DNA of 11,443 bases, from assembly GCA_028278125.1 (NCBI GenBank), contig JANQEY010000194.1:1-11443 (forward strand), written 5' to 3'. Both the position numbers and the translations under genes were made by a program. Source of the DNA: a bacterium. GTDB taxonomy: Bacteria > Electryoneota > Electryoneia > Electryoneales > Electryoneaceae. Positions 1,056-11,443 of the stretch are shown here, one piece after another; position 1 is the stretch's first letter; each line of letters starts with the position of its first letter. Below the pieces are notes generated by a model, which saw only the letters and a list, made by a program, of their open reading frames with translations, was not told where the DNA came from and searched no databases.

Positions 1056-1979
1056 TTAACTTAATCCGGTATCAATACTACATATTACCCTATTCCCCGG
1101 CTCAACAAACTCAATTTTATCAAAGCTAAGTAACCCGGCCATTGCTATCCCCCTGCCGTTAGGCAGGGTGGCCCGCTCCGGACTGAAGTTAATGAACCTT
1201 TCCCATTCAAATCCCTCACCGTCATCAGTGATAATCAACACCAGCGATTCGGATGTTCGCTTTATTTCCACTGTCGCTTTTTTATTTCTGTTTTCCGGAA
1301 GTTCCAGACGTTGTTTGATTTCGTCATGATAAGTCCCACCGAGTAATAACTTTGATTTTTCTTCAAAAGTGATTCCCAGGTTTCCATGTTCAATTGCATT
1401 CTGCATGATTTCCGTGATCCCCAATACTGCTTTTTTAGGATCCGGGCAACTACTGGCCAGAATGAAAGCGATGTTTTTAACCTCTTCCGGGGTGCTGAAT
1501 TCGAACTGGCCTTTAACCAGTTTACCCAGGCCTGTATTAAGATCATCCAGCTTGGTCTGTAACTGCAATAATTCGGAATATGTCGAATTCGTTCGCTTTA
1601 TATCACTGACCGCCGCATCTACTATCGCAAGCAACAATGCTTCATCATAGGGCTTGGTCAGATAATAATAGACACCGGCTTCAATACCTTCCTTGACCTG
1701 TTCAGTAAGCGCCGCACCGGTTTGCATAATTACTGGTATATCCTTATATCTATCATTCGCTTTTAATTCGCTGATAAATTCCATACCATCCATTTCCGGC
1801 ATCATTCTGTCCAGCAGAATAACCATTATGTCCGGGTTTTCTTCAAGCACCTGCCAGGCCTTTTTTCCATTTTCCGCACACAGCACCTCATACCCGGCCA
1901 GTTGAAGATCATCTTCAAGTATCTCGAGATTGATTTCTTCGTCATCAACCGCCAAAACTTTTATCTTTCCATTTTTCAT
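1056..1979 (-). CDS. Response regulator with C-terminal RsbW-like ATPase domain
   Basis: A 307-residue soluble protein. Residues 1-125 form a receiver domain with the acidic pair D12/D13, phospho-acceptor D57 (LLDRMMPEMDG), T87 and K109 (LTKPYD), so it should be phosphorylatable. A short helical linker follows (about 128-150). Residues 155-305 form a GHKL ATPase domain: N-box around N194 (EIMQNAIEHGN), G1 box D252-x-G-x-G (DDGEGF) and a glycine-rich G2 segment at 275-277 (GRGIAMA). No H-box or dimerisation helix pair precedes the ATPase, so it looks like the anti-sigma kinase class (RsbW/SpoIIAB) rather than a histidine kinase. The start is supported by GGAG 7 bases upstream. It lies 24 bases after the multi-PAS kinase gene and is probably one of its phosphorylation targets. 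An inferred role is phosphorylation of a STAS protein such as the one at 8804-8502. Domain calls are strong; substrate is inferred. Confidence 0.9.
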   Translation of the reverse strand: MKNGKIKVLAVDDEEINLEILEDDLQLAGYEVLCAENGKKAWQVLEENPDIMVILLDRMMPEMDGMEFISELKANDRYKDIPVIMQTGAALTEQVKEGIEAGVYYYLTKPYDEALLLAIVDAAVSDIKRTNSTYSELLQLQTKLDDLNTGLGKLVKGQFEFSTPEEVKNIAFILASSCPDPKKAVLGITEIMQNAIEHGNLGITFEEKSKLLLGGTYHDEIKQRLELPENRNKKATVEIKRTSESLVLIITDDGEGFEWERFINFSPERATLPNGRGIAMAGLLSFDKIEFVEPGNRVICSIDTGLS

Positions 1980-1986
1980 AATAATT

Positions 1987-1990
1987 CTCC
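1987..1990 (-). promoter_or_regulatory. Ribosome binding site of the REC-ATPase gene
   Basis: GGAG on the minus strand, 7 bases before the ATG at 1979. It lies in the 24-base gap after the kinase stop codon and supports the chosen start. Confidence 0.6.
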
Positions 1991-2003
1991 GAAATTATTC
2001 AAC

Positions 2004-5000
2004 CTATGCCGCCAGGGGCAAATTAAAGTTGAATATGGCACCTCCTTCAGGATTATTTTCCGCCCAGATCCTCCCATTATTGTGCGTGATTATTTCCTTA
2101 CAAATCGCCAGGCCCAATCCCGTTCCTCCTGCACCTGTTTTGGTTTTTGAACTTTGTACAAATTTATCAAAGACAGTTTCCAATTCGCCTTTGGGTATTC
2201 CTACTCCCTGATCAATGATCGATACGGTTACCGCGGGAATAACATTGCCCGAATCCTTGGCCGACAGTTCGCTTTTAAAAAATTCTACATTGATAAATTT
2301 TTCATCCGGTGTGAATTTAATTGCATTGGATAAAAGATTCACCAACACCTGGGAAATCGCACGTTTATCACCAATTGCCGCGGTCGGCACATCATTTATA
2401 TTGATATTTAATTTGATATTTTTCCGGTACATTAATGATGACAATTCATCAACTACCAATGCCAGTATCTCGGTTAACTCGATTTCCTGGAAGTTATATA
2501 TCACCTTATTCGCTTCCAGTTTTGAAAGGTCCAGCAGGTCATTAATAAGATCCAGTAAACGCTTTCCGCTTTGTTCAATCCTTGTCAAAGATTTCAGGGT
2601 TTTTTCCGGTGAATTTGTTTCAATTCGTTTCATCGTGGTGTTGGCCAGGTGAAGTATTGCGTGCATTGGTGTACGCAACTCATGGGACATATTGGCCAGG
2701 AATTCCGACTTGGCCTCATTGGCTCTTTCCGCTTCATGTTTGGCTTCTACCAGGTTCGCTGTTTGTTGATCAACCAGTGTCTGCAGGTTTTCACGATGAA
2801 GCTTTAACTCTTCCTCTGCTTTTTTCTGCTCGGTAATGTCACGGAAAACAACGACAGCACCTATATATTCGCCATCTTGCTGTATAGGAGTACTAACATA
2901 ATCGACGGGGAAGCTACTGCCGTCCTGCCGCCAAAAAACTTCATCACTAACATAGTGAACATTGCCATCATTAAATGCTGCATAAATGGGACATTCGGTG
3001 CGTGGATACGGGCTGCCATCCGCACGGCTGTGGTGAATGAGTTCGTGCTGGCGAGACCCGATAAGTTTATCGGCTTCATAACCCAGCATTTGTGCCGCAG
3101 TGGGGTTAATAAAAGTAATACAGCCGTCGGTATTGACACCGTAGATTCCTTCGCCGGCAGCTTCCAGTATCAACTCATTATCGCGTTTTGCCCGGGCCAG
3201 ACCTTCCTGTGTCAGCTTATGTTCCGTCATGTCCCTGAGAGTCATCACCATACCGGTAATCGTATTATCTTCATCCCGGTGCGGGATATAGGTTACCTCC
3301 AGATAGCGCTCACCGATATCAGGGAATGGGAACCAGCTGTTCTGCTTCTGGGTATCACCGGCAAACACCTTCCCATAATATTTTCTTTTATTCTTTTCAA
3401 ATCGCTCCCTGCCGATAACCTCTGATACATGGCGCCCTACTACCTCCTCGGGTTTCACATTCATCATATGCAGGAAAGTGTTATTGACGGTCCTGAAAAT
3501 ATAATCCACATCAACAAACGCCATGATCTCATTGGAAGCGTCAACGATATGTTTGTATCGTTTTAACTCTTTCTCAGCATGTTTTATCCCGTCGATGTCC
3601 CTGACACTGCTGACTATACCCGTAATCACTCCTTTTTCGTTATAAAACGGACTTAAATTGACATCCAGGTATTTGTAACTTCCATCCCGCATTCTTTTTA
3701 TCTGATAATTAACTACCTCACCGTCAAGACAGGAAATCAGTTTTTTCTTGGCGGATGTCTCAAAATACTCAACACCGATAATATCGACGATTGATTTTCC
3801 GACGATCTTTTCTCTTGGTAAACGGAAAGTGTCGATAAACTGCTGGTTTACTGCCCGGTAGATTAAATCCGTATCAATAAACGCCATACTGTCACGGGTA
3901 GCGTTAATAATATGTTTATATATCTGCAGTTCATCCTCGACTATTTTTCTCTCGGATGTATCCCTTATGCTTAAAACGGCTCCCGCTATTTTGCCATTTT
4001 CATCAATATACGGACTAAAACTCACCGCCATATAAAGTTGTACACCCTTTGTTGCAGGATAATCACGCCACACATAATTGGTAACCGATTCTCCCTGCAG
4101 ACATCTGTCGATATTGTGCTTTGCATGGGTTCGAAAAGCTTCTTCACCGATGACGGCAATGACATCATGACCCACTACCTCACCCCACGATTTCAGATAG
4201 TAATCCAGATAACTCTTATTTGCCGCCCGGTAAATATAATCCTTGTCTACCAGAATCATGGCTTCATTGGTAGAGTCGACGATATGTTTGTATTGCCGTA
4301 ATTCCTGTTCAGCCAGCTTAGCCTGGGTAACATCACGCGCACTGAAAACAACACCCGAAACAGTCCCATCATGCTCCTTATAGGGATTAAAATTGATATC
4401 CAGACAAATCCGGTGGTTATCCGGGGTCAGCAGCCATTTTAGTGTATGGATATTCTCCCCGGACAGACACCGATCCAGATCCGGCTTTACATCATTATAG
4501 AAAGTATCCATGCCGATCACATCAACCGGCGTATGGCCTATCACTTCACTGGCATCTTTCTTAAACAGATCTAAATAACTCTGGTTGATTGCCCGGTAAA
4601 CATAATCGGAGTCCAGATATGCCATCAAATCCGCAGTGGTATCCACGATATGACGGTAACGTTGTAACTCCCTTTCTGAATTTTTCCGATCTGTAATATC
4701 CCTGACTACTGCAGAAACAATCATTCCCTGTTCGGTTACCAGTGGGTTCAGGTTGATTTCCACCGGGATCTCTTTGCCGTCTTTCCTCCGGATAAAGAGC
4801 TCCAGATTCTCTCCCATCTGACGCGTATGGGGAGCCTGAAAAAAATTTCGCCGCAGACCTTGATGATTTCCGGCAAATCTGTCAGGTAACAATTTTTCTA
4901 TTGGTTGCTCCAGTAACTCATCGCTACAGTATTGTGTCATTATCTGGAGTTTTTCATTGACCAGTTCTATCTCCCCGTGACAATTGACGATGACTATTCC

Positions 5001-6737
5001 ATCCTGCGCGGATTCCAACAATCCTCTGAATTTCTCCTCACTTTGCCTGAGTGTTAATTCGGAATATTTGTATTCCAGAACTTCGGTAAAAATATTGGCG
5101 ACTGCCTGCAGGAAATTGATATCATCCTTGTTAAAAGCCTTTTTCTCACAGGCATATACAATTAGTATCCCCCAGGGGACTTTTTGTCCATGGATAATGA
5201 CACTGGCACTGCTGATGAGGTTGTCCTGATCCATTATCCGGGGATCCGAAAAACGTTTATCAAGCGTCAAATCTTCCACGATAACCGGTTCATTGACGAG
5301 TAATGTATAACCAGCCTGTGACCTGGCATCGAACGGGATCATCATCTTTCCTACCAGTGCGGTATCCCCACCCATGGCAGCGGCCAACCGTAATTCCTTT
5401 TTTGACGGTGAAAACTCAAATACCTTGCAATGCTCGACGGAAAGAGTCTCGGCGACACGTTTAACAACATAGTTCATCAGATCTTCAGGCCGGTGACTCT
5501 TAAGGGTTTGTCTACCCAGTTCGGCAATAACAGCCTGCTGATTGATCCGATTCTGCAAGGCATCCTCCGCCAGTTTCTGCTCAGTAATATCATGTCCTGT
5601 AATCACCGCGCCGGTGATCTTTCCATCTGCCTCCCAGTGCGGGGTATGACTGAACTCAAGATAACGGCGACCTAAACCGGGAAAATCAAACCATTTACAG
5701 AGCCTGAAACCTTCACCCTGAAGGCACCTGTCAATATCTTTTTTGACAAATTTCCGGAATTTCTCCTCGCCCAGTACTTCACATACCGGCCTTTCCATCA
5801 CCTGTTCCCTTTCCCTGTTCACGGCATCAAGATAACGCTGATTCACCGCTTTATAGATATAATTGCTGTCGACAAATACCATTAAATCCATTGATGAGTT
5901 AGCGATATTGTTATAACGCCGCAACTCCTCTTCTACGACTTTTCTTTCGGTAATATCAATAATAATTCCAAAGGCGCGGTGTATCTCATCTTGTTCATTA
6001 CGTATTAAGTTTACCAATGAGAAAATATGACGTACCTCACCGCTTTTTGTAACTATACGGTATTCGTGATTGAGTCTCTGTCCGGTTCTGATCGCCTTGT
6101 CCCTTTCATGTTTAAAGGCTTGCCGGTCATCAGGATGAATAAAATCCATAATCGGATCGCTGGATTGGGAAAATTCTTCCGGGGTTCTGCCGAATATGTT
6201 AACGACTTCATCTGACCAGTAAATCTTGTTGGCAAGGATATCTCTCTCAAAAAAACCCATGCGTGCGATTTTTTGTGCTTCACGGAGACGGTTGTCCTCC
6301 CGCCTGAGTATCTCCTCCATCTGTCCCTGTGGGATAACTTCGCTCACGGCAACCGTATAATAATCACTGCTATTTGCCGGATCGGACCAGGGGTAATCTT
6401 TAACTATCTTAGGGTTAAGCTTATTAATAAATCTGGTAAACCCGAATACCATAAAACTCAGGCTTGCCAGAATAGCAATCCAGTGCCAGTTCATTGGCGG
6501 ATGTCTTGCCACCCCTGATAAAGCTTTGTCTGGCGGCGAGAAAAATACACTTATCAAATCGAAAAAATAAAATAATGTGATAAGGATAACGCCGACCAGT
6601 AGCAGGGCAACCGGAACGGAAAACTCCGGCCTTTCATCGGTCTGATGATCACGCATTAACAGATAAACGAGATACCCGGATACCAGGATCATAACGATAT
6701 CGATCAATCCAGTCATTACAGAGGTATCCCAGTTCAT
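2004..6737 (-). CDS. Membrane-anchored multi-PAS/GAF sensor histidine kinase (8 PAS, 1 GAF)
   Basis: A 1577-residue inner-membrane sensor kinase. Three predicted membrane helices lie at about 9-28, 40-66 and 84-104, with no large periplasmic domain, so sensing is probably cytoplasmic or within the membrane. Then follow PAS1 (about 145-268), PAS2 (from Y275), GAF (about 400-560), PAS3 (about 564-680), PAS4 (from Y694), PAS5 (Y816), PAS6 (Y940), PAS7 (Y1061) and PAS8 (about 1184-1306). After a coiled-coil linker comes the HisKA domain with phospho-acceptor H1352 (SHELRTP), then the ATPase domain with N1471 (N-box), D1509 (DQGVGIP) and the G2 box from 1538 (GTGLGL). All catalytic motifs are intact. 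There is no receiver or HPt domain, so phosphate should pass directly to separate receiver proteins; the flanking HsbR-like and REC-ATPase genes, 19 and 24 bases away, are the obvious candidates. The Shine-Dalgarno sequence is weak (GAGCGAG), suggesting translation coupled to the gene before. PAS2 and PAS4-7 are paralogous. Ligands cannot be told from sequence. Confidence 0.93.
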   Translation of the reverse strand: MNWDTSVMTGLIDIVMILVSGYLVYLLMRDHQTDERPEFSVPVALLLVGVILITLFYFFDLISVFFSPPDKALSGVARHPPMNWHWIAILASLSFMVFGFTRFINKLNPKIVKDYPWSDPANSSDYYTVAVSEVIPQGQMEEILRREDNRLREAQKIARMGFFERDILANKIYWSDEVVNIFGRTPEEFSQSSDPIMDFIHPDDRQAFKHERDKAIRTGQRLNHEYRIVTKSGEVRHIFSLVNLIRNEQDEIHRAFGIIIDITERKVVEEELRRYNNIANSSMDLMVFVDSNYIYKAVNQRYLDAVNREREQVMERPVCEVLGEEKFRKFVKKDIDRCLQGEGFRLCKWFDFPGLGRRYLEFSHTPHWEADGKITGAVITGHDITEQKLAEDALQNRINQQAVIAELGRQTLKSHRPEDLMNYVVKRVAETLSVEHCKVFEFSPSKKELRLAAAMGGDTALVGKMMIPFDARSQAGYTLLVNEPVIVEDLTLDKRFSDPRIMDQDNLISSASVIIHGQKVPWGILIVYACEKKAFNKDDINFLQAVANIFTEVLEYKYSELTLRQSEEKFRGLLESAQDGIVIVNCHGEIELVNEKLQIMTQYCSDELLEQPIEKLLPDRFAGNHQGLRRNFFQAPHTRQMGENLELFIRRKDGKEIPVEINLNPLVTEQGMIVSAVVRDITDRKNSERELQRYRHIVDTTADLMAYLDSDYVYRAINQSYLDLFKKDASEVIGHTPVDVIGMDTFYNDVKPDLDRCLSGENIHTLKWLLTPDNHRICLDINFNPYKEHDGTVSGVVFSARDVTQAKLAEQELRQYKHIVDSTNEAMILVDKDYIYRAANKSYLDYYLKSWGEVVGHDVIAVIGEEAFRTHAKHNIDRCLQGESVTNYVWRDYPATKGVQLYMAVSFSPYIDENGKIAGAVLSIRDTSERKIVEDELQIYKHIINATRDSMAFIDTDLIYRAVNQQFIDTFRLPREKIVGKSIVDIIGVEYFETSAKKKLISCLDGEVVNYQIKRMRDGSYKYLDVNLSPFYNEKGVITGIVSSVRDIDGIKHAEKELKRYKHIVDASNEIMAFVDVDYIFRTVNNTFLHMMNVKPEEVVGRHVSEVIGRERFEKNKRKYYGKVFAGDTQKQNSWFPFPDIGERYLEVTYIPHRDEDNTITGMVMTLRDMTEHKLTQEGLARAKRDNELILEAAGEGIYGVNTDGCITFINPTAAQMLGYEADKLIGSRQHELIHHSRADGSPYPRTECPIYAAFNDGNVHYVSDEVFWRQDGSSFPVDYVSTPIQQDGEYIGAVVVFRDITEQKKAEEELKLHRENLQTLVDQQTANLVEAKHEAERANEAKSEFLANMSHELRTPMHAILHLANTTMKRIETNSPEKTLKSLTRIEQSGKRLLDLINDLLDLSKLEANKVIYNFQEIELTEILALVVDELSSLMYRKNIKLNININDVPTAAIGDKRAISQVLVNLLSNAIKFTPDEKFINVEFFKSELSAKDSGNVIPAVTVSIIDQGVGIPKGELETVFDKFVQSSKTKTGAGGTGLGLAICKEIITHNNGRIWAENNPEGGAIFNFNLPLAA
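3197..4664 (-). repeat. Four tandem paralogous PAS modules inside the kinase gene
   Basis: PAS4 to PAS7 each begin with a variant of YKHIVDxSxExMxFVDxDY and follow one another at 122, 124 and 121 residues (Y694, Y816, Y940, Y1061), close to 366 bases each. PAS2 (Y275) is a fifth, separated member. The modules have diverged, but PAS5 and PAS7 still share the 15-base stretch acgatatgtttgtat (4279-4293 and 3544-3558, plus-strand reading) within a longer similar region. This points to in-gene tandem duplication. Confidence 0.8.
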
Positions 6738-6756
6738 TATACGCTCGCTCTAGTGT

Positions 6757-8484
6757 TTACCAGCTGTAATTTACTTCAACTTCTCTGCCACTCTGCCGGT
6801 AATCAATACTGTCACTCAGGGATTTCACCAGGCCTATGCCTCTTGCGGATTGTTCCTGCGACAATATCTGATCTACATCAAAACCATTACCGGTATCCCT
6901 GATACGAATAGAGAATGTACCTCCGTCTCCGGAGGGTTTGTGTACGATATCTATATCGATTTCCCCATCCTTCAATTGTTCCAGCGCCTGTTTTCGCTGG
7001 AAATCATAGTCGGAAAAACCGATTGTGCTGTGATCGGTTTTTGTGGGCAAGTCCAGAATGCCGTGTTCGAGGGAGTTAAGATACAACTCTGATATTATGG
7101 TGTATAAATTTTGTCGATGACTGTCAATCCCCTGCATATCGGTAAGCAATTGTACAATCATGGGCACCGGATTTAATTCACGCAGGGTATCCGTATTCAG
7201 GGAGATACTAAACTTCCAGGTACCAGGTTCACGTGTATCTTTTCCGGAACGGAATTCATCATCATCGATAAGAATATCCTTGCATGAGATTTCCAGTATA
7301 CTGATATCATCCAGTTGTTCCACTCCGCTTCTGAATTGTTCGATGGTATTCAGTATTGTTTCAAATACTGCGTCCTGGTCAGTACTTTTACGAATGCAAT
7401 CGATCAGTCGCTCCGAGCCGAATGCATCATTATTTACGTTATTTGCATCAATCAGTCCATCACTATAGAGATAGATGCGATCGTCTTCCATCACCTGGTA
7501 ATGATTGATTTTGATATCCAGGTTGCGGTTTTTCTCGATCCCCAGGGGGAGGTTTCCAGAAGAACTTCTGAAACGTATGGTGTTTTTATTTGAACATATC
7601 AACACATCGGGCAGACCGGCATTAAATACGGAGACCGCCTTTTCATTCGGACGTATCTCCAGCATACATGCAGCCATAAAACGTCCGGTTGGCAGGGTTA
7701 TATTCAGCTTATAGTTAAGTTCATATATTACCTCTTCCATGGTATATCCTTTGGATACCATGGCATGGAAGGTATCCGCAACAATCATACATCCTATCGA
7801 AGCACCGAGACCATGTCCGGTAAAATCGGCCAGCAAAAACACCTGGCTTTTAGACGGCGTCAATGAAGACAGAATTAAATCCCCACTCAGGATATCAACA
7901 GGAGAAATGGAAAATTTGATATTATTGGTATTGAGATTTGACGCACGTGAAATATTAGTAATGATTTTTTCAGCGATCTCCATATCATAGTGATAGATCT
8001 GCTGGATATGCTCCAATTCGTTTTTTCTGGACTGAACCTGATCGTGCATTTTCTTGATCCGCATCAGGCTTTCAATCTTGGAAACAAGCAATGTGGCATT
8101 ATAGGGTTTACAGAGAAAATCATCTCCACCCGATTGCAAACACTTGATTAATGCATCTTCATCTACGATTGAGGTCAGGAAGATAATCGGGACGAATAAA
8201 TGACGTTGTTCCGATAGTTGTTTAATCCTGACCACCGCATCATAGCCATTCATCATGGGCATATTGATATCCATCAAAATAATATCCGGCTGTTCACGTT
8301 CAAAAGATTCGACAGCCTCATACCCGTTGACAACTTCCGTGATCCGGTATTCGTTAGTGTTTAATACTTTTTTAACGAACGCCCTGTCAATTTTTGAATC
8401 TTCGACAAGTAACAGCTTTATCCTGCCAAACTCACCTTCCGCACCCGATGAGTCAATATCTTGCCCGCACGTTTTATCTAACAT
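6757..8484 (-). CDS. hsbR: HsbR-like REC-PP2C phosphatase-ATPase response regulator
   Basis: A 575-residue cytoplasmic switch protein with three domains. Residues 22-145 are a receiver with phospho-acceptor D72 (LMDINMP), T104 and K126. After a helical linker (about 145-175), residues 175-400 are a SpoIIE/RsbU-type PP2C phosphatase with metal-binding acids D202 (SGDL), D220 (ADFTGHG), D342 (YSDG) and D393 (LDDIS). Residues 425-575 are an RsbW-like ATPase with N470 in the N-box (ELYLNSLEHG), D530-x-G-x-G and ARGIGL at 547-552. This is the domain order of Pseudomonas HsbR and Shewanella CrsR. In that family, phosphorylation of the receiver switches the protein between kinase and phosphatase activity towards the STAS partner HsbA. 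The hsbA-like gene lies 17 bases upstream, the same hsbA-hsbR order as I recall in Pseudomonas. No HptB gene follows; a large kinase stands in its place. The Shine-Dalgarno is weak and translational coupling is likely. All active-site residues are present, so both activities are expected. Confidence 0.9.
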   Translation of the reverse strand: MLDKTCGQDIDSSGAEGEFGRIKLLLVEDSKIDRAFVKKVLNTNEYRITEVVNGYEAVESFEREQPDIILMDINMPMMNGYDAVVRIKQLSEQRHLFVPIIFLTSIVDEDALIKCLQSGGDDFLCKPYNATLLVSKIESLMRIKKMHDQVQSRKNELEHIQQIYHYDMEIAEKIITNISRASNLNTNNIKFSISPVDILSGDLILSSLTPSKSQVFLLADFTGHGLGASIGCMIVADTFHAMVSKGYTMEEVIYELNYKLNITLPTGRFMAACMLEIRPNEKAVSVFNAGLPDVLICSNKNTIRFRSSSGNLPLGIEKNRNLDIKINHYQVMEDDRIYLYSDGLIDANNVNNDAFGSERLIDCIRKSTDQDAVFETILNTIEQFRSGVEQLDDISILEISCKDILIDDDEFRSGKDTREPGTWKFSISLNTDTLRELNPVPMIVQLLTDMQGIDSHRQNLYTIISELYLNSLEHGILDLPTKTDHSTIGFSDYDFQRKQALEQLKDGEIDIDIVHKPSGDGGTFSIRIRDTGNGFDVDQILSQEQSARGIGLVKSLSDSIDYRQSGREVEVNYSW

Positions 8485-8501
8485 TATTTTCTATGCGATT
8501 A

Positions 8502-8804
8502 TCATTCAATCGTTACCATCTGCTGGAAATTGGCAACGTGCAGGATTTCCTTGACATTGTCTTTTGCGTTAATTATCCGTACCGAATCTATCGTATCACC
8601 GGCATGTTCTCTCATTTGAAGGAGCATTCCCAATGCTGAGCTGTCCAAATAAGTGGTCTGACTCAAATCAACAATGAATTTTCTGACCCCAGGATTATCA
8701 GTGTATGATTTCCTTAGCTCCGAATGGATATCAAATGCAAATCGATCCGGCATACTGATTGTTACCATCTGCCCGTCATCCGAGGTCCGTATATTAAGTG
8801 CCAT
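8502..8804 (-). CDS. hsbA: HsbA-like STAS anti-sigma-factor antagonist
   Basis: A 100-residue cytoplasmic STAS-domain protein of the SpoIIAA/RsbV type, full length for the family. The hallmark is the segment YLDSSALGML at 52-61, where S55/S56 align with the phosphorylated serine loop of SpoIIAA; S56 is the likely phosphosite. Proteins of this class bind an anti-sigma factor or other target when unphosphorylated and are released when a cognate RsbW-like kinase phosphorylates them. The HsbR-like gene 17 bases downstream carries both kinase and phosphatase domains for it. In Pseudomonas the relative HsbA is reported to bind FlgM and a diguanylate cyclase, but neither is encoded here, so the output is unknown. 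The ATG is preceded by AGGAG at 7 bases, the clearest ribosome binding site in the cluster, which fits a need for excess antagonist over its kinase. Confidence 0.9.
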   Translation of the reverse strand: MALNIRTSDDGQMVTISMPDRFAFDIHSELRKSYTDNPGVRKFIVDLSQTTYLDSSALGMLLQMREHAGDTIDSVRIINAKDNVKEILHVANFQQMVTIE

Positions 8805-8898: not shown

Positions 8899-10179
8899 TC
8901 AAAATAAGTGAACCTCTCCCTCAGTCATTGAATTCTGTTCAACGGTTTTATGTATCGATTGATCATTGAGTTGCTCAAGCTGCTGATTGATTCTGCAGGA
9001 TATCTGCCGCAATCTCTGTTCGTATTTCTTCTCATTTACTTCAGTACTGAGATCATCCAGCTCCTTTATTACTGACTGGATTATCCCATCAGCTTTTTCA
9101 ACTTTTTTGTCGATATGTTCGGATACCTGACGAATGATATCTTCGTGTTGCAGGTTGCGTACTGCTATTGCTGTTTTTTCAGCCAGGCTCTCATTGACTA
9201 AAGAAATCTCCTTTAACGAACGTTTGAGGTTTCCATCCAGTTCCTGAATCGATTCCATCATATGATCGACCTTTGCCTTACCCGAAAGAAAGACATTCAT
9301 GTCCTTCGACGCCGTCTCACCGATTAACTCCCTGGAATCAATGATCATGGACTGGGCCGAATGGATCATCTCTCTTATTTCTTCGTTAAAGTTATTTGAG
9401 GTTAATGACAGTTTTCTTACTTCATCAGCAACCACGGCAAAACCACGTCCTGCCTCACCGGCCCTGGCCGCTTCAATAGCAGCATTCAGAGCAAGTAAGT
9501 TCGTCTGTTCCGCGATGGAGTGGACCTCGGATAACATACCGAATATCTGCTCCATTTGTTCGGAAAGCTGATCCGTCTTGACGACAATATCCATACTGTT
9601 TTTGCTGTTTTCTACCAGCAGATCAACAAAATGTTTCAGCACATTGGAGGTTTTATCTACGAACTGCAGAATGGTGACCGATTCTTCGTCCGTATTATCC
9701 GAATCATTCGTTTCCTTTTTACCTCCCTTCTTTTCCGCAACTTCCTGTTCGGTATCCACCAGTTCTATCCTTTCCACCATATTGACCATGATGTCATGTT
9801 GGGCCTGGGTATCATTACTGATTTCTGTGAAACTGTGACTCAGGCTGTTGATGGACTCGGCAAGCAACCGGCGGATCTGGGATGATTCCTGGGTAAACGA
9901 CTGGATAATTTCATTGATAGAATGCTGAAAACCGGCGATTAATTTCAATGTTGAAGCGGACAGAGGATGGGCCGAACCCGCCGTTTCCGGTTGTCGCTCA
10001 CTGTCCGGTCCGTCGTGAGTCCGGTTCTGATTGCCGCTTCGCACAACAGAAATCAGCCAGACAATGGTCAACAGGGGCACAAGGATATGCCCATACTGCT
10101 GCCCGGCTTTCGTCCATGCAAATATGATTGCCGATAAACTGATCAGCATAGAGAAACGGTGTGCTGTCAATGATTCCAT
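8899..10179 (-). CDS. Methyl-accepting chemotaxis protein with minimal membrane sensor
   Basis: A 426-residue chemoreceptor. Two short hydrophobic segments (about 9-25 and 30-47), separated by only a few polar residues, form a membrane hairpin with no periplasmic ligand domain and no recognisable HAMP domain. A polar linker (48-75) leads into the helical signalling region. The conserved hairpin tip, which contacts CheA and CheW, spans about 222-257 and includes [19 protein letters not shown] and [15 protein letters not shown] lysine-, glutamate- and aspartate-rich stretch at 144-166 interrupts the N-terminal helix. The protein ends in EGEVHLF and has no NWETF-type CheR tether. The start has GAGG 11 bases upstream, slightly far. 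It sits between cheB (43 bases) and the STAS gene (94 bases), so it probably reports to the same chemosensory array that CheB adapts. The stimulus is unknown; membrane state or a partner protein are possible inputs. Confidence 0.9.
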
Positions 10180-10222
10180 GCTTATACCATCCTCACTTCC
10201 GAGGGATTGTCATATACTCCTA

Positions 10223-11344
10223 TTAAATCGACATTTTTTCCTCTTTCTTTAATACCTTAGCAGCAGTCTTAGACACCAGATCGAGAAGCTTTCTGGGTAT
10301 CCTGGACAGCGGTTCAACGTCGTCGACGCCTCCCAACTTTACCGCGGCACCGGGCATGCCCCAGACAACACTGGTCTTCTCGTCCTGGGCGATGGTTTGT
10401 GCACCGTTTTCATGCATTTCCTTGAGTCCCTGGGCCCCGTCCGCCCCCATGCCCGTCAGGATAATTCCGATCGCATTCTTGCCGACATTTTGAGCGACCG
10501 AGCGAAACAAGACATCGACTGAAGGCCGGTGACGGTTGACCGGCGGCCCACTGTCCAGACGGCATAGATATCTCGCTCCGCTTCTCTCTACCAGCAGGTG
10601 CTGATTTCCGGGTGCGATATAGACATCGCCGGGTACAATTTGCTGGCCGTCCCTGGCTTCATAAACATTCATTTCGGCAGCGGCATTTACACGTTTGGCG
10701 AAAGTCCCACTAAATGCTTCGGGGATATGCTGGGTGATCACCATGCCCGGTGCATCGGCTGGCATAGCCGTCACCAGTTTGAAAATAGCCTCGGTACCCC
10801 CGGTTGATGCGCCCACGGCGATGATGCTGTCCGTCGTTTTAAACGACAGATTGGTCTTCTTTTTTGCTTTCAGGATCACATCAGCCGAATGTTTGACCGG
10901 CTTCCCTGGCTGTTGCTCTCCGGACTCTTCACTTGGCTGGATATTTGCCCTGGCCGCGGTCTTGACCTTGCTGATTACCTCCTGTGAATAATCGACAAAG
11001 GTAGCGGCCAGATCCACCTTCGGCTTAGTCACATAATCAACTGCTCCCAAAGCCAGGGCATCCAGGGTGACATCGGCACCACCTTCCGTTAGTGAGGACA
11101 CCATGACCACCGGTATGGGATGTAACCGCATCAGGTTTGACAGGAATGTTACCCCATCCATACGCGGCATCTCCACATCCAGGGTCAGCACGTCCGGGTT
11201 TAACTGTTTTATCTTGTCCCGGGCAATATAGGGATCCGCCGCCGTACCGACCACTTCAATGGCACTATCAGACGATAAGATCTCGGTCAGCATCTGCCGT
11301 ACCAGAGCCGAATCATCGATAATTAATACTTTGATCTTTGCCAT
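10223..11344 (-). CDS. cheB: CheB protein-glutamate methylesterase/deamidase response regulator
   Basis: A 373-residue cytoplasmic adaptation enzyme that removes methyl groups from (and deamidates) chemoreceptor glutamate/glutamine sites. Residues 1-125 are a receiver with D10/D11, phospho-acceptor D56 ([11 protein letters not shown]), S83/S84 and K107. A polar linker runs to about 170. The esterase domain carries the catalytic triad S180 (GASTGG), H206 (TQHIP) and D302 (GMGADGA). The spacings (26 and 96 residues) equal those of S164/H190/D286 in the E. coli enzyme, as I recall its numbering. CheA normally phosphorylates D56 and thereby activates the esterase; no cheA is visible, so it should lie upstream beyond the right edge. 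The start at [12 protein letters not shown] is the canonical one, though only a poor AAGAG lies next to the ATG and a heptanucleotide repeat begins 6 bases upstream. The reading frame stays open through that repeat but has no start codon in it. Confidence 0.95.
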
Positions 11345-11350
11345 ACTCTT

Positions 11351-11443
11351 CGGTTCTCGGTTCTCGGTTCTCGGTTCTCGGTTCTCGGTTCTCGGTTCTC
11401 GGTTCTCGGTTCTCGGTTCTCGGTTCTCGGTTCTCGGTTCTCG
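11351..11443. repeat. Heptanucleotide tandem repeat (CGGTTCT)n, 13 copies, running off the window
   Basis: Thirteen perfect copies of CGGTTCT followed by CG at the window edge, with no mismatch seen. The minus-strand unit is AGAACCG. The array stops 6 bases before the cheB ATG, so it occupies the normal place of the leader and ribosome binding site. Because 7 is not a multiple of 3, gain or loss of a unit would shift any reading frame crossing it. On the minus strand the unit has no stop or start codon in any frame. True copy number is unknown because the window ends inside the array. Confidence 0.95.

What the first reader, a model, noticed from the sequence alone, without database searches (positions are those of the whole stretch)
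1056..8804. One STAS protein with two REC-controlled RsbW-like ATPases in the same operon
Seen: a STAS antagonist (8804-8502), a REC-PP2C-ATPase (8484-6757) and a REC-ATPase without phosphatase (1979-1056) lie in one tightly spaced, same-strand cluster, all with intact motifs. Known: HsbR/HsbA-type modules use a single bifunctional HsbR to set the STAS phosphorylation state. Inference: the second REC-ATPase may be a competing, kinase-only input on the same STAS protein, or may itself be the anti-sigma-like target of the STAS protein. Either would give a two-input partner switch that, as far as I know, differs from the described HptB-HsbR-HsbA pathway.
Basis: partly seen in the sequence, partly recalled or inferred. 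Interest (0 to 1): 0.7.

Follow-up and report, generated by a model that had tools for sequence, protein, structure and literature searches.

The report
Chemosensory partner switch with extra kinase
A bacterial chemosensory gene cluster carries a one-domain switch protein together with two enzymes that look able to phosphorylate it, each apparently driven by a different sensor, and genome comparisons suggest that the second, poorly understood enzyme is often a partner of this switch protein.

Summary
On the minus strand lie CheB, an MCP-like protein, an HsbA/CrsA-type STAS protein, an HsbR/CrsR-type REC-PP2C-ATPase, a 1577-aa multi-PAS histidine kinase (not mentioned in the finding) and a REC-ATPase without phosphatase; the last four are 17-24 nt apart. 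The REC-ATPase matches the description of TciR of Vogesella (published 2025, target unknown). The STAS-HsbR part resembles the chemosensory CrsR-CrsA module of Shewanella che1. Comparative evidence ties the TciR-like family to HsbA-type STAS proteins: STAS is present in 35 of 37 TciR genomes of an order sample (16 of 106 others) and 23 of 27 of a class sample (78 of 342 others); TciR is enriched where the HsbR-type ATPase is missing; and it shares an operon or contig stretch with STAS in several lineages, in two arrangements next to or fused to a PP2C where HsbR's ATPase is absent. Best reading: a PAS-kinase-controlled, kinase-only input to the STAS protein that HsbR also controls. Binding and phosphorylation are untested, and an anti-sigma-like role is not excluded. 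New variant of a known kind; its value is a testable target for an orphan response-regulator family.

The parts
10223..11344 (-). CheB (REC + CheB methylesterase), start of the chemosensory part seen in the window
   Evidence: NCBIfam PRK00742 446.9 bits over cut-off 293; Pfam CheB_methylest, Response_reg
8899..10179 (-). MCP-like signalling protein between CheB and STAS
   Evidence: Pfam MCPsignal 102 bits; same place in L181, L185, L186
8502..8804 (-). HsbA/CrsA-type STAS-only protein with D54-S55-S56
   Evidence: Pfam STAS/STAS_2 above cut-off; 32 hits incl. itself; alignment A2
6757..8484 (-). HsbR/CrsR-type REC-PP2C-ATPase, kinase and phosphatase motifs intact
2004..6737 (-). Histidine kinase with eight PAS stretches, GAF, HisKA and HATPase_c; inferred partner of the REC-ATPase
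   Evidence: a related kinase lies within 300 nt on the same strand in 33 of 80 loci of the REC-ATPase family; the five nearest rows in the kinase-core tree are all such neighbours, but the placement has no strong support
1056..1979 (-). TciR-like REC-ATPase without phosphatase; inferred kinase-only input to the STAS protein

Best explanation
A chemosensory partner-switch module with two kinase inputs to one STAS protein. The HsbR/CrsR-like protein is the bifunctional regulator (kinase and PP2C phosphatase) of the STAS protein, probably driven by the chemosensory array whose CheB and MCP genes precede it. The TciR-like REC-ATPase is a second, kinase-only enzyme for the same STAS protein (likely at S56 or S55), switched by the PAS histidine kinase encoded just upstream of it. 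The phosphorylation state of the STAS protein, and so which partner it binds, would then be set by a chemosensory signal and a PAS-kinase signal together. Shown: gene order, domains, intact motifs, genome-level association, repeated gene neighbourhood and replacement patterns. Inferred: all protein contacts, the phosphorylation site, which sensor feeds which receiver, and the output.
For: (1) Co-occurrence. In 369 genomes of one class the TciR-type ATPase (58 bits or more) is in 27, of which 23 have the STAS protein (E<=1e-3), against 78 of 342 others (p=1e-10). In 143 genomes of another group it is in 37, of which 35 have it (E<=1e-10), against 16 of 106 (p=1e-18; without four seed genomes 31 of 33 against 16 of 106). 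(2) Replacement. In the class sample, STAS-positive genomes without an HsbR-type ATPase have TciR more often than those with one: 10 of 14 against 12 of 77 at STAS E<=1e-10 (p=6e-5; 8 of 12 against 11 of 76 without seeds), 11 of 17 against 12 of 78 at 1e-6 (p=9e-5), 11 of 23 against 12 of 78 at 1e-3 (p=0.003). Of 76 genomes reached through TciR loci, 33 have a strong STAS hit (E<=1e-10) and no HsbR-type ATPase. (3) Gene order. CheB-STAS-[REC-PP2C]-TciR in one operon (L183); MCP-STAS-[REC-TciATPase-PP2C fused] (L002, L006, L018, one lineage); TciR-MCP-STAS (L182); STAS 5-14 kb from TciR on the same contig and strand (L007, L012, L014, L028, L033; L181; L344); CheB-STAS-STAS-[REC-PP2C]-divergent REC-ATPase in two Nitrospira genomes (L285, L337). 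(4) In 14 of 80 loci TciR is followed within 16 nt by a REC-PP2C without ATPase (Pfam seen for four); all 14 genomes lack the HsbR-type ATPase and 12 have a strong STAS hit. (5) HsbR ATPase motifs are broken in 4 of 27 TciR-positive and 0 of 28 TciR-negative genomes examined (p=0.05), whereas TciR keeps them in 74 of 81. (6) The two ATPase types are homologous (hhalign 98.7%).
Against: No binding or kinase data. 16 of 76 TciR genomes have neither a strong STAS hit nor an HsbR-type ATPase; 10 of these 16 have no STAS hit at E<=1e-3 at all, so part of the family must do something else. Only 10 of 80 TciR loci were found with STAS within 15 kb, and they fall in about five lineages. Genomes are related, which the tests ignore, and both genes may go with chemotaxis: against CheB-positive genomes the link is weaker (odds ratio about 7, p=1e-4, with a denominator extrapolated from 28 CheB-positive of 76 sampled; odds ratio 2.1, p=0.31, if the 28 are used without extrapolation). 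No such control was run for the second sample. The motif-loss difference is at the edge of significance. In the window both kinases look intact, so nothing there shows a division of labour. The Vogesella authors report no RsbV homologue in their strain (PMC12826045, passages), and the four Neisseriales-type relatives with TciR tested here (G398-G401) also have an HsbR-type ATPase.
Confidence: 0.6

Rival explanations
1. The REC-ATPase is an anti-sigma-like or sequestering target: its RsbW-like domain holds a sigma factor or other client, and the STAS protein, set by HsbR, frees the client by binding it. HsbR is the writer and the REC-ATPase the reader.
For: HsbR and CrsR are reported to interact with RpoS (PMC6482189, abstract, introduction and one results section); the TciR authors put forward inhibition of a sigma factor as their basic model (PMC12826045, section 8 and passages). 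Association data fit any STAS partner, reader or writer.
Against: In operons and genomes where no HsbR-type ATPase was found, the REC-ATPase stands beside or together with STAS and REC-PP2C, so a kinase would be lacking; the kinase motifs incl. the N-box Glu are kept in 74 of 81. RsbW-type proteins can be both, so this rival is not exclusive.
Confidence: 0.2
2. A PAS-kinase/TciR two-component pair with its own unrelated target that merely sits next to the crsRA-like genes; the genome-level link reflects a shared chemotactic or large-genome lifestyle.
For: In 70 of 80 TciR loci STAS was not found within 15 kb; upstream neighbours of ten TciR copies without an adjacent kinase gave no signalling partner (e.g. 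ketoacyl synthase, FKBP, ParA-like, transporter); 16 of 76 genomes have no strong STAS and no HsbR-type ATPase; the CheB-restricted test is weaker.
Against: Repeated same-strand neighbourhood in several lineages and fusion or adjacency with PP2C; enrichment where the HsbR-type ATPase is missing; 35 of 37 against 16 of 106.
Confidence: 0.15
3. Both histidine-kinase and chemosensory signals act on both receivers; the second ATPase is a redundant enzyme that only raises kinase dose.
For: Both ATPases are intact in the window.
Against: The two ATPase types are well separated by profile (window REC-ATPase 212 v 64 bits, HsbR 27 v 194), so this is not a recent duplicate.
Confidence: 0.05

Closest known systems
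CrsR-CrsA in the che1 locus of Shewanella oneidensis
   Same: STAS antagonist and CrsR encoded among che genes and MCPs; che1 holds CheA1, Y1, W1, R1, D1, B1, two MCPs, CrsR, CrsA (PMC9855816, passages).
   Different: No REC-ATPase and PAS kinase are among the ten che1 genes listed there. The gene order in che1 was not seen.
HptB-HsbR-HsbA of Pseudomonas aeruginosa
   Same: HsbR with receiver, PP2C and kinase/anti-sigma domain acts on a STAS-type antagonist phosphorylated at Ser56 (PMC6482189, sections 3 and 8).
   Different: There the input is HptB with three hybrid kinases and one bifunctional HsbR; here CheB/MCP neighbours and a second REC-ATPase.
TciK-TciR of Vogesella indigofera
   Same: Histidine kinase followed by a REC + RsbW-like protein in an apparent two-gene operon; relatives reported in beta-, gamma- and alphaproteobacteria and Nitrospira (PMC12826045, abstract passage, section 8 and discussion passages).
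   Different: No STAS partner known there; the authors state that an RsbV homologue is lacking.
SypE-SypA of Vibrio fischeri
   Same: Kinase, REC and PP2C domains acting on a STAS-only protein (PMC8256260 and PMC12826045, passages).
   Different: One protein, listed as kinase, REC, PP2C (that this is the domain order is recalled); no second REC-ATPase in the passages seen.
RbaV-RbaW-RbaY of Rhodobacter capsulatus
   Same: Split module: STAS, separate HATPase protein, separate REC-PP2C (PMC3999984, passages).
   Different: Only an HATPase domain is reported for RbaW in the passages seen, no receiver.

Membership tests
HsbR/CrsR-HsbA/CrsA partner switch | STAS-only protein with the DSS phospho-site motif | tested here: met
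   D54-S55-S56
HsbR/CrsR-HsbA/CrsA partner switch | REC-PP2C-ATPase in one protein next to the STAS gene | tested here: met
   17-nt gap; domains and motifs; HsbR-type ATPase profile 194 bits, a profile seeded with the window's own protein
HsbR/CrsR-HsbA/CrsA partner switch | Chemosensory (che1-type) neighbourhood, as for CrsRA | tested here: met
   CheB and MCP directly upstream; any further che genes would lie outside the window and were not seen
HsbR/CrsR-HsbA/CrsA partner switch | Binding of RpoS, FlgM or HsbD; input from HptB or CheA | not testable with these tools
   no own genome held; needs experiments
TciR-type REC-ATPase | REC followed by RsbW-like ATPase, about 300 aa, no other output domain | tested here: met
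TciR-type REC-ATPase | Histidine kinase gene directly upstream | tested here: met
   24-nt gap in the window; 28 of 80 family loci upstream, 5 more downstream
TciR-type REC-ATPase | Sequence similarity to Vogesella TciR itself | not tested
   TciR sequence not retrieved; the spread reported in the paper agrees with that seen
RsbW/SpoIIAB anti-sigma kinases | Match to HATPase_c_2 above the curated cut-off | tested here: not met
   25.8 and 27.1 bits against 27.4; best solved relative by sequence is 9qih SenB, with RsbW (6m36) at E=0.036 for the HsbR-type profile
SypE-type regulators | Domain order ATPase-REC-PP2C (order recalled) | tested here: not met
   window order is REC-PP2C-ATPase

The most novel reading that the evidence does not exclude
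TciR-like response regulators, a widespread family with no known target, are in the main the kinase half of a dispersed partner switch on chemosensory HsbA-type STAS proteins: together with REC-PP2C proteins they form a 'split HsbR' in which two separately sensed receivers write and erase the STAS phosphate, and in loci like this window they are added on top of an intact HsbR to give a two-kinase, two-sensor switch.
Probability: 0.5. Interest if true: 0.75.

Novelty: new variant of a known kind. Interest (0 to 1): 0.6.

Why it matters
[quoted passage not shown] The comparisons here name a concrete candidate partner, the HsbA-type STAS protein of chemosensory clusters, and point to genomes in which the test is clean because no HsbR-type ATPase was found. 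If right, it links ordinary sensor histidine kinases to a serine-phosphorylation switch that also listens to a chemosensory array, and turns 'what does TciR do' into a two-protein assay.

Tried and rejected
Rejected or corrected on the way: (1) The NHAD column was a script fault (a stale alignment file was reused) and was dropped; the annotation was rebuilt. (2) The idea that the REC-ATPase is a recent duplicate of the HsbR ATPase: profiles separate the two. (3) The raw tally (64 of 369) mixes HsbR-type ORFs with the TciR type; only hits of 58 bits or more were counted as TciR (27 genomes). HsbR-type was counted for hits of 56 bits or more at places other than TciR loci (82 genomes, a few partial), and for hits of 65 bits or more (27 of 76). 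(4) The tree of kinase cores (57 rows) puts the window kinase nearest to kinases beside TciR genes, but at an open fork, with an unsettled bootstrap and long branches; weak support only. (5) Upstream neighbours of ten TciR copies without an adjacent kinase gave no common partner. (6) No close genome could be read: the order of G080 holds 3 genomes, and the two nearest contigs (33405 and 6166 nt) are known only through the lengths listed with their proteins; equal length is taken as the same contig, an inference. On a 6166-nt contig a 4.7-kb kinase gene would not fit together with both neighbours, so the large kinase is not kept there in this form. (7) CheB control: 28 of 76 sampled genomes with no STAS, HsbR-type ATPase or TciR have CheB, as do all 4 TciR genomes without a STAS hit (G043, G112, G315, G355); extrapolated test p=1e-4, without extrapolation p=0.31. 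(8) A search for SenB: none of the 15 papers listed, of 48 found, mentions it. (9) The HsbR motif count covers the HsbR genes at hand (best 30 plus fetched regions), 55 genomes without the window, not every HsbR found; His to Tyr in the N box of G097 and G012 (both TciR-positive) was not counted as broken. Absence in print of a TciR-STAS link rests (open-access library only).
Full report
What is there. The window reads, on the minus strand, CheB (11344-10223), an MCP-like protein (10179-8899), a 100-aa STAS protein (8804-8502), a 575-aa REC-PP2C-ATPase (8484-6757), a 1577-aa histidine kinase with eight PAS stretches and a GAF domain (6737-2004), a 307-aa REC-ATPase (1979-1056) and nhaD (929 to the window edge). 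Gaps inside STAS-HsbR-kinase-REC-ATPase are 17, 19 and 24 nt. Receiver, kinase, phosphatase and STAS motifs are intact. The two ATPases fall just under the Pfam cut-off for HATPase_c_2 but match profiles built here from their relatives with 212 and 194 bits (the window's own proteins are among the seeds).

What each part is. The STAS and REC-PP2C-ATPase proteins are of the HsbA/HsbR and CrsA/CrsR kind. HsbR of Pseudomonas is fed by HptB (PMC6482189, sections seen), but the neighbours here, CheB and an MCP, fit the che1 locus of Shewanella, which holds crsA, crsR and two MCPs (PMC9855816, passages). CheB-MCP-STAS followed by an HsbR-type protein or ATPase recurs in L181, L185 and L186. The REC-ATPase has very many relatives: 6579 hits in a capped search (some may match by the receiver alone); of the 120 best, all have a precomputed receiver match and 113 also HATPase_c_2. 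[quoted passage not shown] TciR's own sequence was not compared. In 80 family loci a kinase related to the window's lies within 300 nt on the same strand in 33, 28 of them upstream, so the window's PAS kinase is the natural partner of the REC-ATPase.

Does the REC-ATPase go with the STAS protein? In a sample of 369 genomes of one class (that of G001, the genome of L013, a record titled Gammaproteobacteria), 27 have the TciR-type ATPase (58 bits or more) and 23 of these have the STAS protein (E<=1e-3); of the other 342, 78 have it (p=1e-10). In 143 genomes of the order of G398 (the genome of L003, Iodobacter), 37 have the ATPase and 35 of these the STAS protein (E<=1e-10), against 16 of 106 others (p=1e-18). 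Among STAS-positive genomes of the first sample TciR is in 10 of 14 without and 12 of 77 with an HsbR-type ATPase (STAS E<=1e-10, p=6e-5); at E<=1e-6 the figures are 11 of 17 and 12 of 78 (p=9e-5), at E<=1e-3 11 of 23 and 12 of 78 (p=0.003); without three seed genomes 8 of 12 and 11 of 76. Of 273 genomes with neither, 3 have TciR. These tests ignore kinship. A CheB control for the first sample found CheB in 28 of 76 sampled genomes with no STAS, HsbR-type ATPase or TciR, and in all 4 TciR genomes without STAS; with the denominator extrapolated the link stays (p=1e-4), with the 28 alone it does not (p=0.31). The second sample has no such control.

In 76 genomes reached through TciR loci (the 79 genomes of the 80 loci without G001, G011 and G080), 27 have an HsbR-type ATPase, 59 a strong STAS hit, 33 a strong STAS hit and no HsbR-type ATPase, and 16 neither; 10 of the 16 have no STAS hit at E<=1e-3. 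In 14 of 80 loci TciR is followed within 16 nt by a REC-PP2C protein without an ATPase (Pfam seen for four of them, two with a PAS domain). None of these 14 genomes has an HsbR-type ATPase and 12 have a strong STAS hit; in 11 of the 12 the STAS gene fetched stands next to CheB, and in none next to an HsbR-type gene.

Gene order. Ten of 80 TciR loci were found to have the STAS gene within 15 kb, all on the same strand: L002, L006 and L018 (MCP-STAS-[REC-TciATPase-PP2C] fused), L013 (CheB-STAS-[REC-PP2C]-TciR), L028, L007, L012, L014 and L033 (8.0 to 13.7 kb, with CheB and MCP genes near STAS), and L045 (12 kb, seen in L181). Flanks are often cut by contig ends (1.29 Mb held in all) and only strong STAS hits were followed further, so this is a lower bound. 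A rough expectation from one to two STAS genes per 4 Mb would be about one in 80; that figure is mine, not a tool result, and the ten stand for about five lineages. Outside the 80 loci, G104 has TciR-MCP-STAS, G537 has kinase-kinase-TciR and, 5 kb on, CheB-STAS-PP2C without ATPase, and two Nitrospira genomes have CheB-STAS-STAS-[REC-PP2C]-divergent REC-ATPase (L285, L337). For the window's nearest relatives, TciR (67% identical), HsbR (52%) and STAS (68%) hits all list a longest contig of 33405 nt, and TciR (67%) and HsbR (53%) hits both list 6166 nt. A third relative, with STAS 76% identical, lists 12228 nt and shares that length with an HsbR-like protein of 443 aa that ends after the PP2C part; whether it is truncated, and whether TciR is in that genome, is not known.

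Kinase wear. HsbR-type ATPase motifs were complete in 28 of 28 TciR-negative genomes examined and broken in 4 of 27 TciR-positive ones (G080 N-box Asn and G1 box, G212 and G227 G1 Asp, G003 N-box Glu; p=0.05). In G003 the TciR gene follows that HsbR by 15 nt (L040). TciR motifs are complete in 74 of 81, with Asp for Glu in 6 and Ala in 1.

Mechanism. The best reading is a STAS protein with two kinase inputs: HsbR, bifunctional and chemosensory-linked, and the TciR-like enzyme, kinase-only and under the PAS kinase. In Pseudomonas the phospho-state of HsbA decides between FlgM and HsbR or HsbD as partner (PMC6482189); the output here is not known. That the REC-ATPase is instead a sequestering target freed by STAS is possible, and RsbW-type proteins can be both.

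Novelty. Two-receiver, two-kinase control of one STAS protein was not seen in the listings of the paper searches made (open-access library only) nor in the passages read. The parts are known kinds. The link between TciR-like regulators and HsbA-type STAS proteins is, as far as those searches show, not in print, and is the useful result.

Noticed in passing
window 11350-11443: Perfect heptanucleotide tandem repeat TCGGTTC, 13.4 copies, directly upstream of cheB and running to the window edge; possibly a phase-variable or expression-tuning stretch.
   Followed up: no
window 10001-11000: G+C is 0.53 in this stretch (mostly cheB) against 0.40-0.45 in the other 1-kb steps.
   Followed up: no
L185:8458-9414 and L186:8925-9854: CheB-MCP-STAS followed by an HsbR-type ATPase whose N-terminal 150 aa match no REC or PP2C profile here (Pfam run on the L185 protein only); another rearranged kinase.
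   Followed up: partly
L285:3830-7095 and L337:7321-10586: Two Nitrospira genomes carry two adjacent STAS genes, a REC-PP2C and a divergent REC-ATPase after CheB.
   Followed up: partly
L338, L339, L340, L341: Genomes of the Magnetospirillum/Rhodospirillaceae loci hold further STAS-ATPase-PP2C sets with ATPases scoring higher with the HsbR than the TciR profile and no detected receiver on the ATPase.
   Followed up: no
L201, L203, L206, L207, L209, L210, L212, L220: In these loci of TciR genomes the STAS gene stands between CheB and a 321-340-aa protein with a C-terminal receiver, perhaps CheV (layout recalled, not tested).
   Followed up: no
L023:9194-10969: A 592-aa ORF with a partial GGDEF match before REC and the TciR-type ATPase: a possible fusion with a diguanylate cyclase-like part.
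   Followed up: no
PDB 9qih (SenB): A solved protein named SenB is the best sequence match in the PDB for both ATPase types and matches the REC-ATPase over nearly its whole length; none of the papers listed mentions it.
   Followed up: partly
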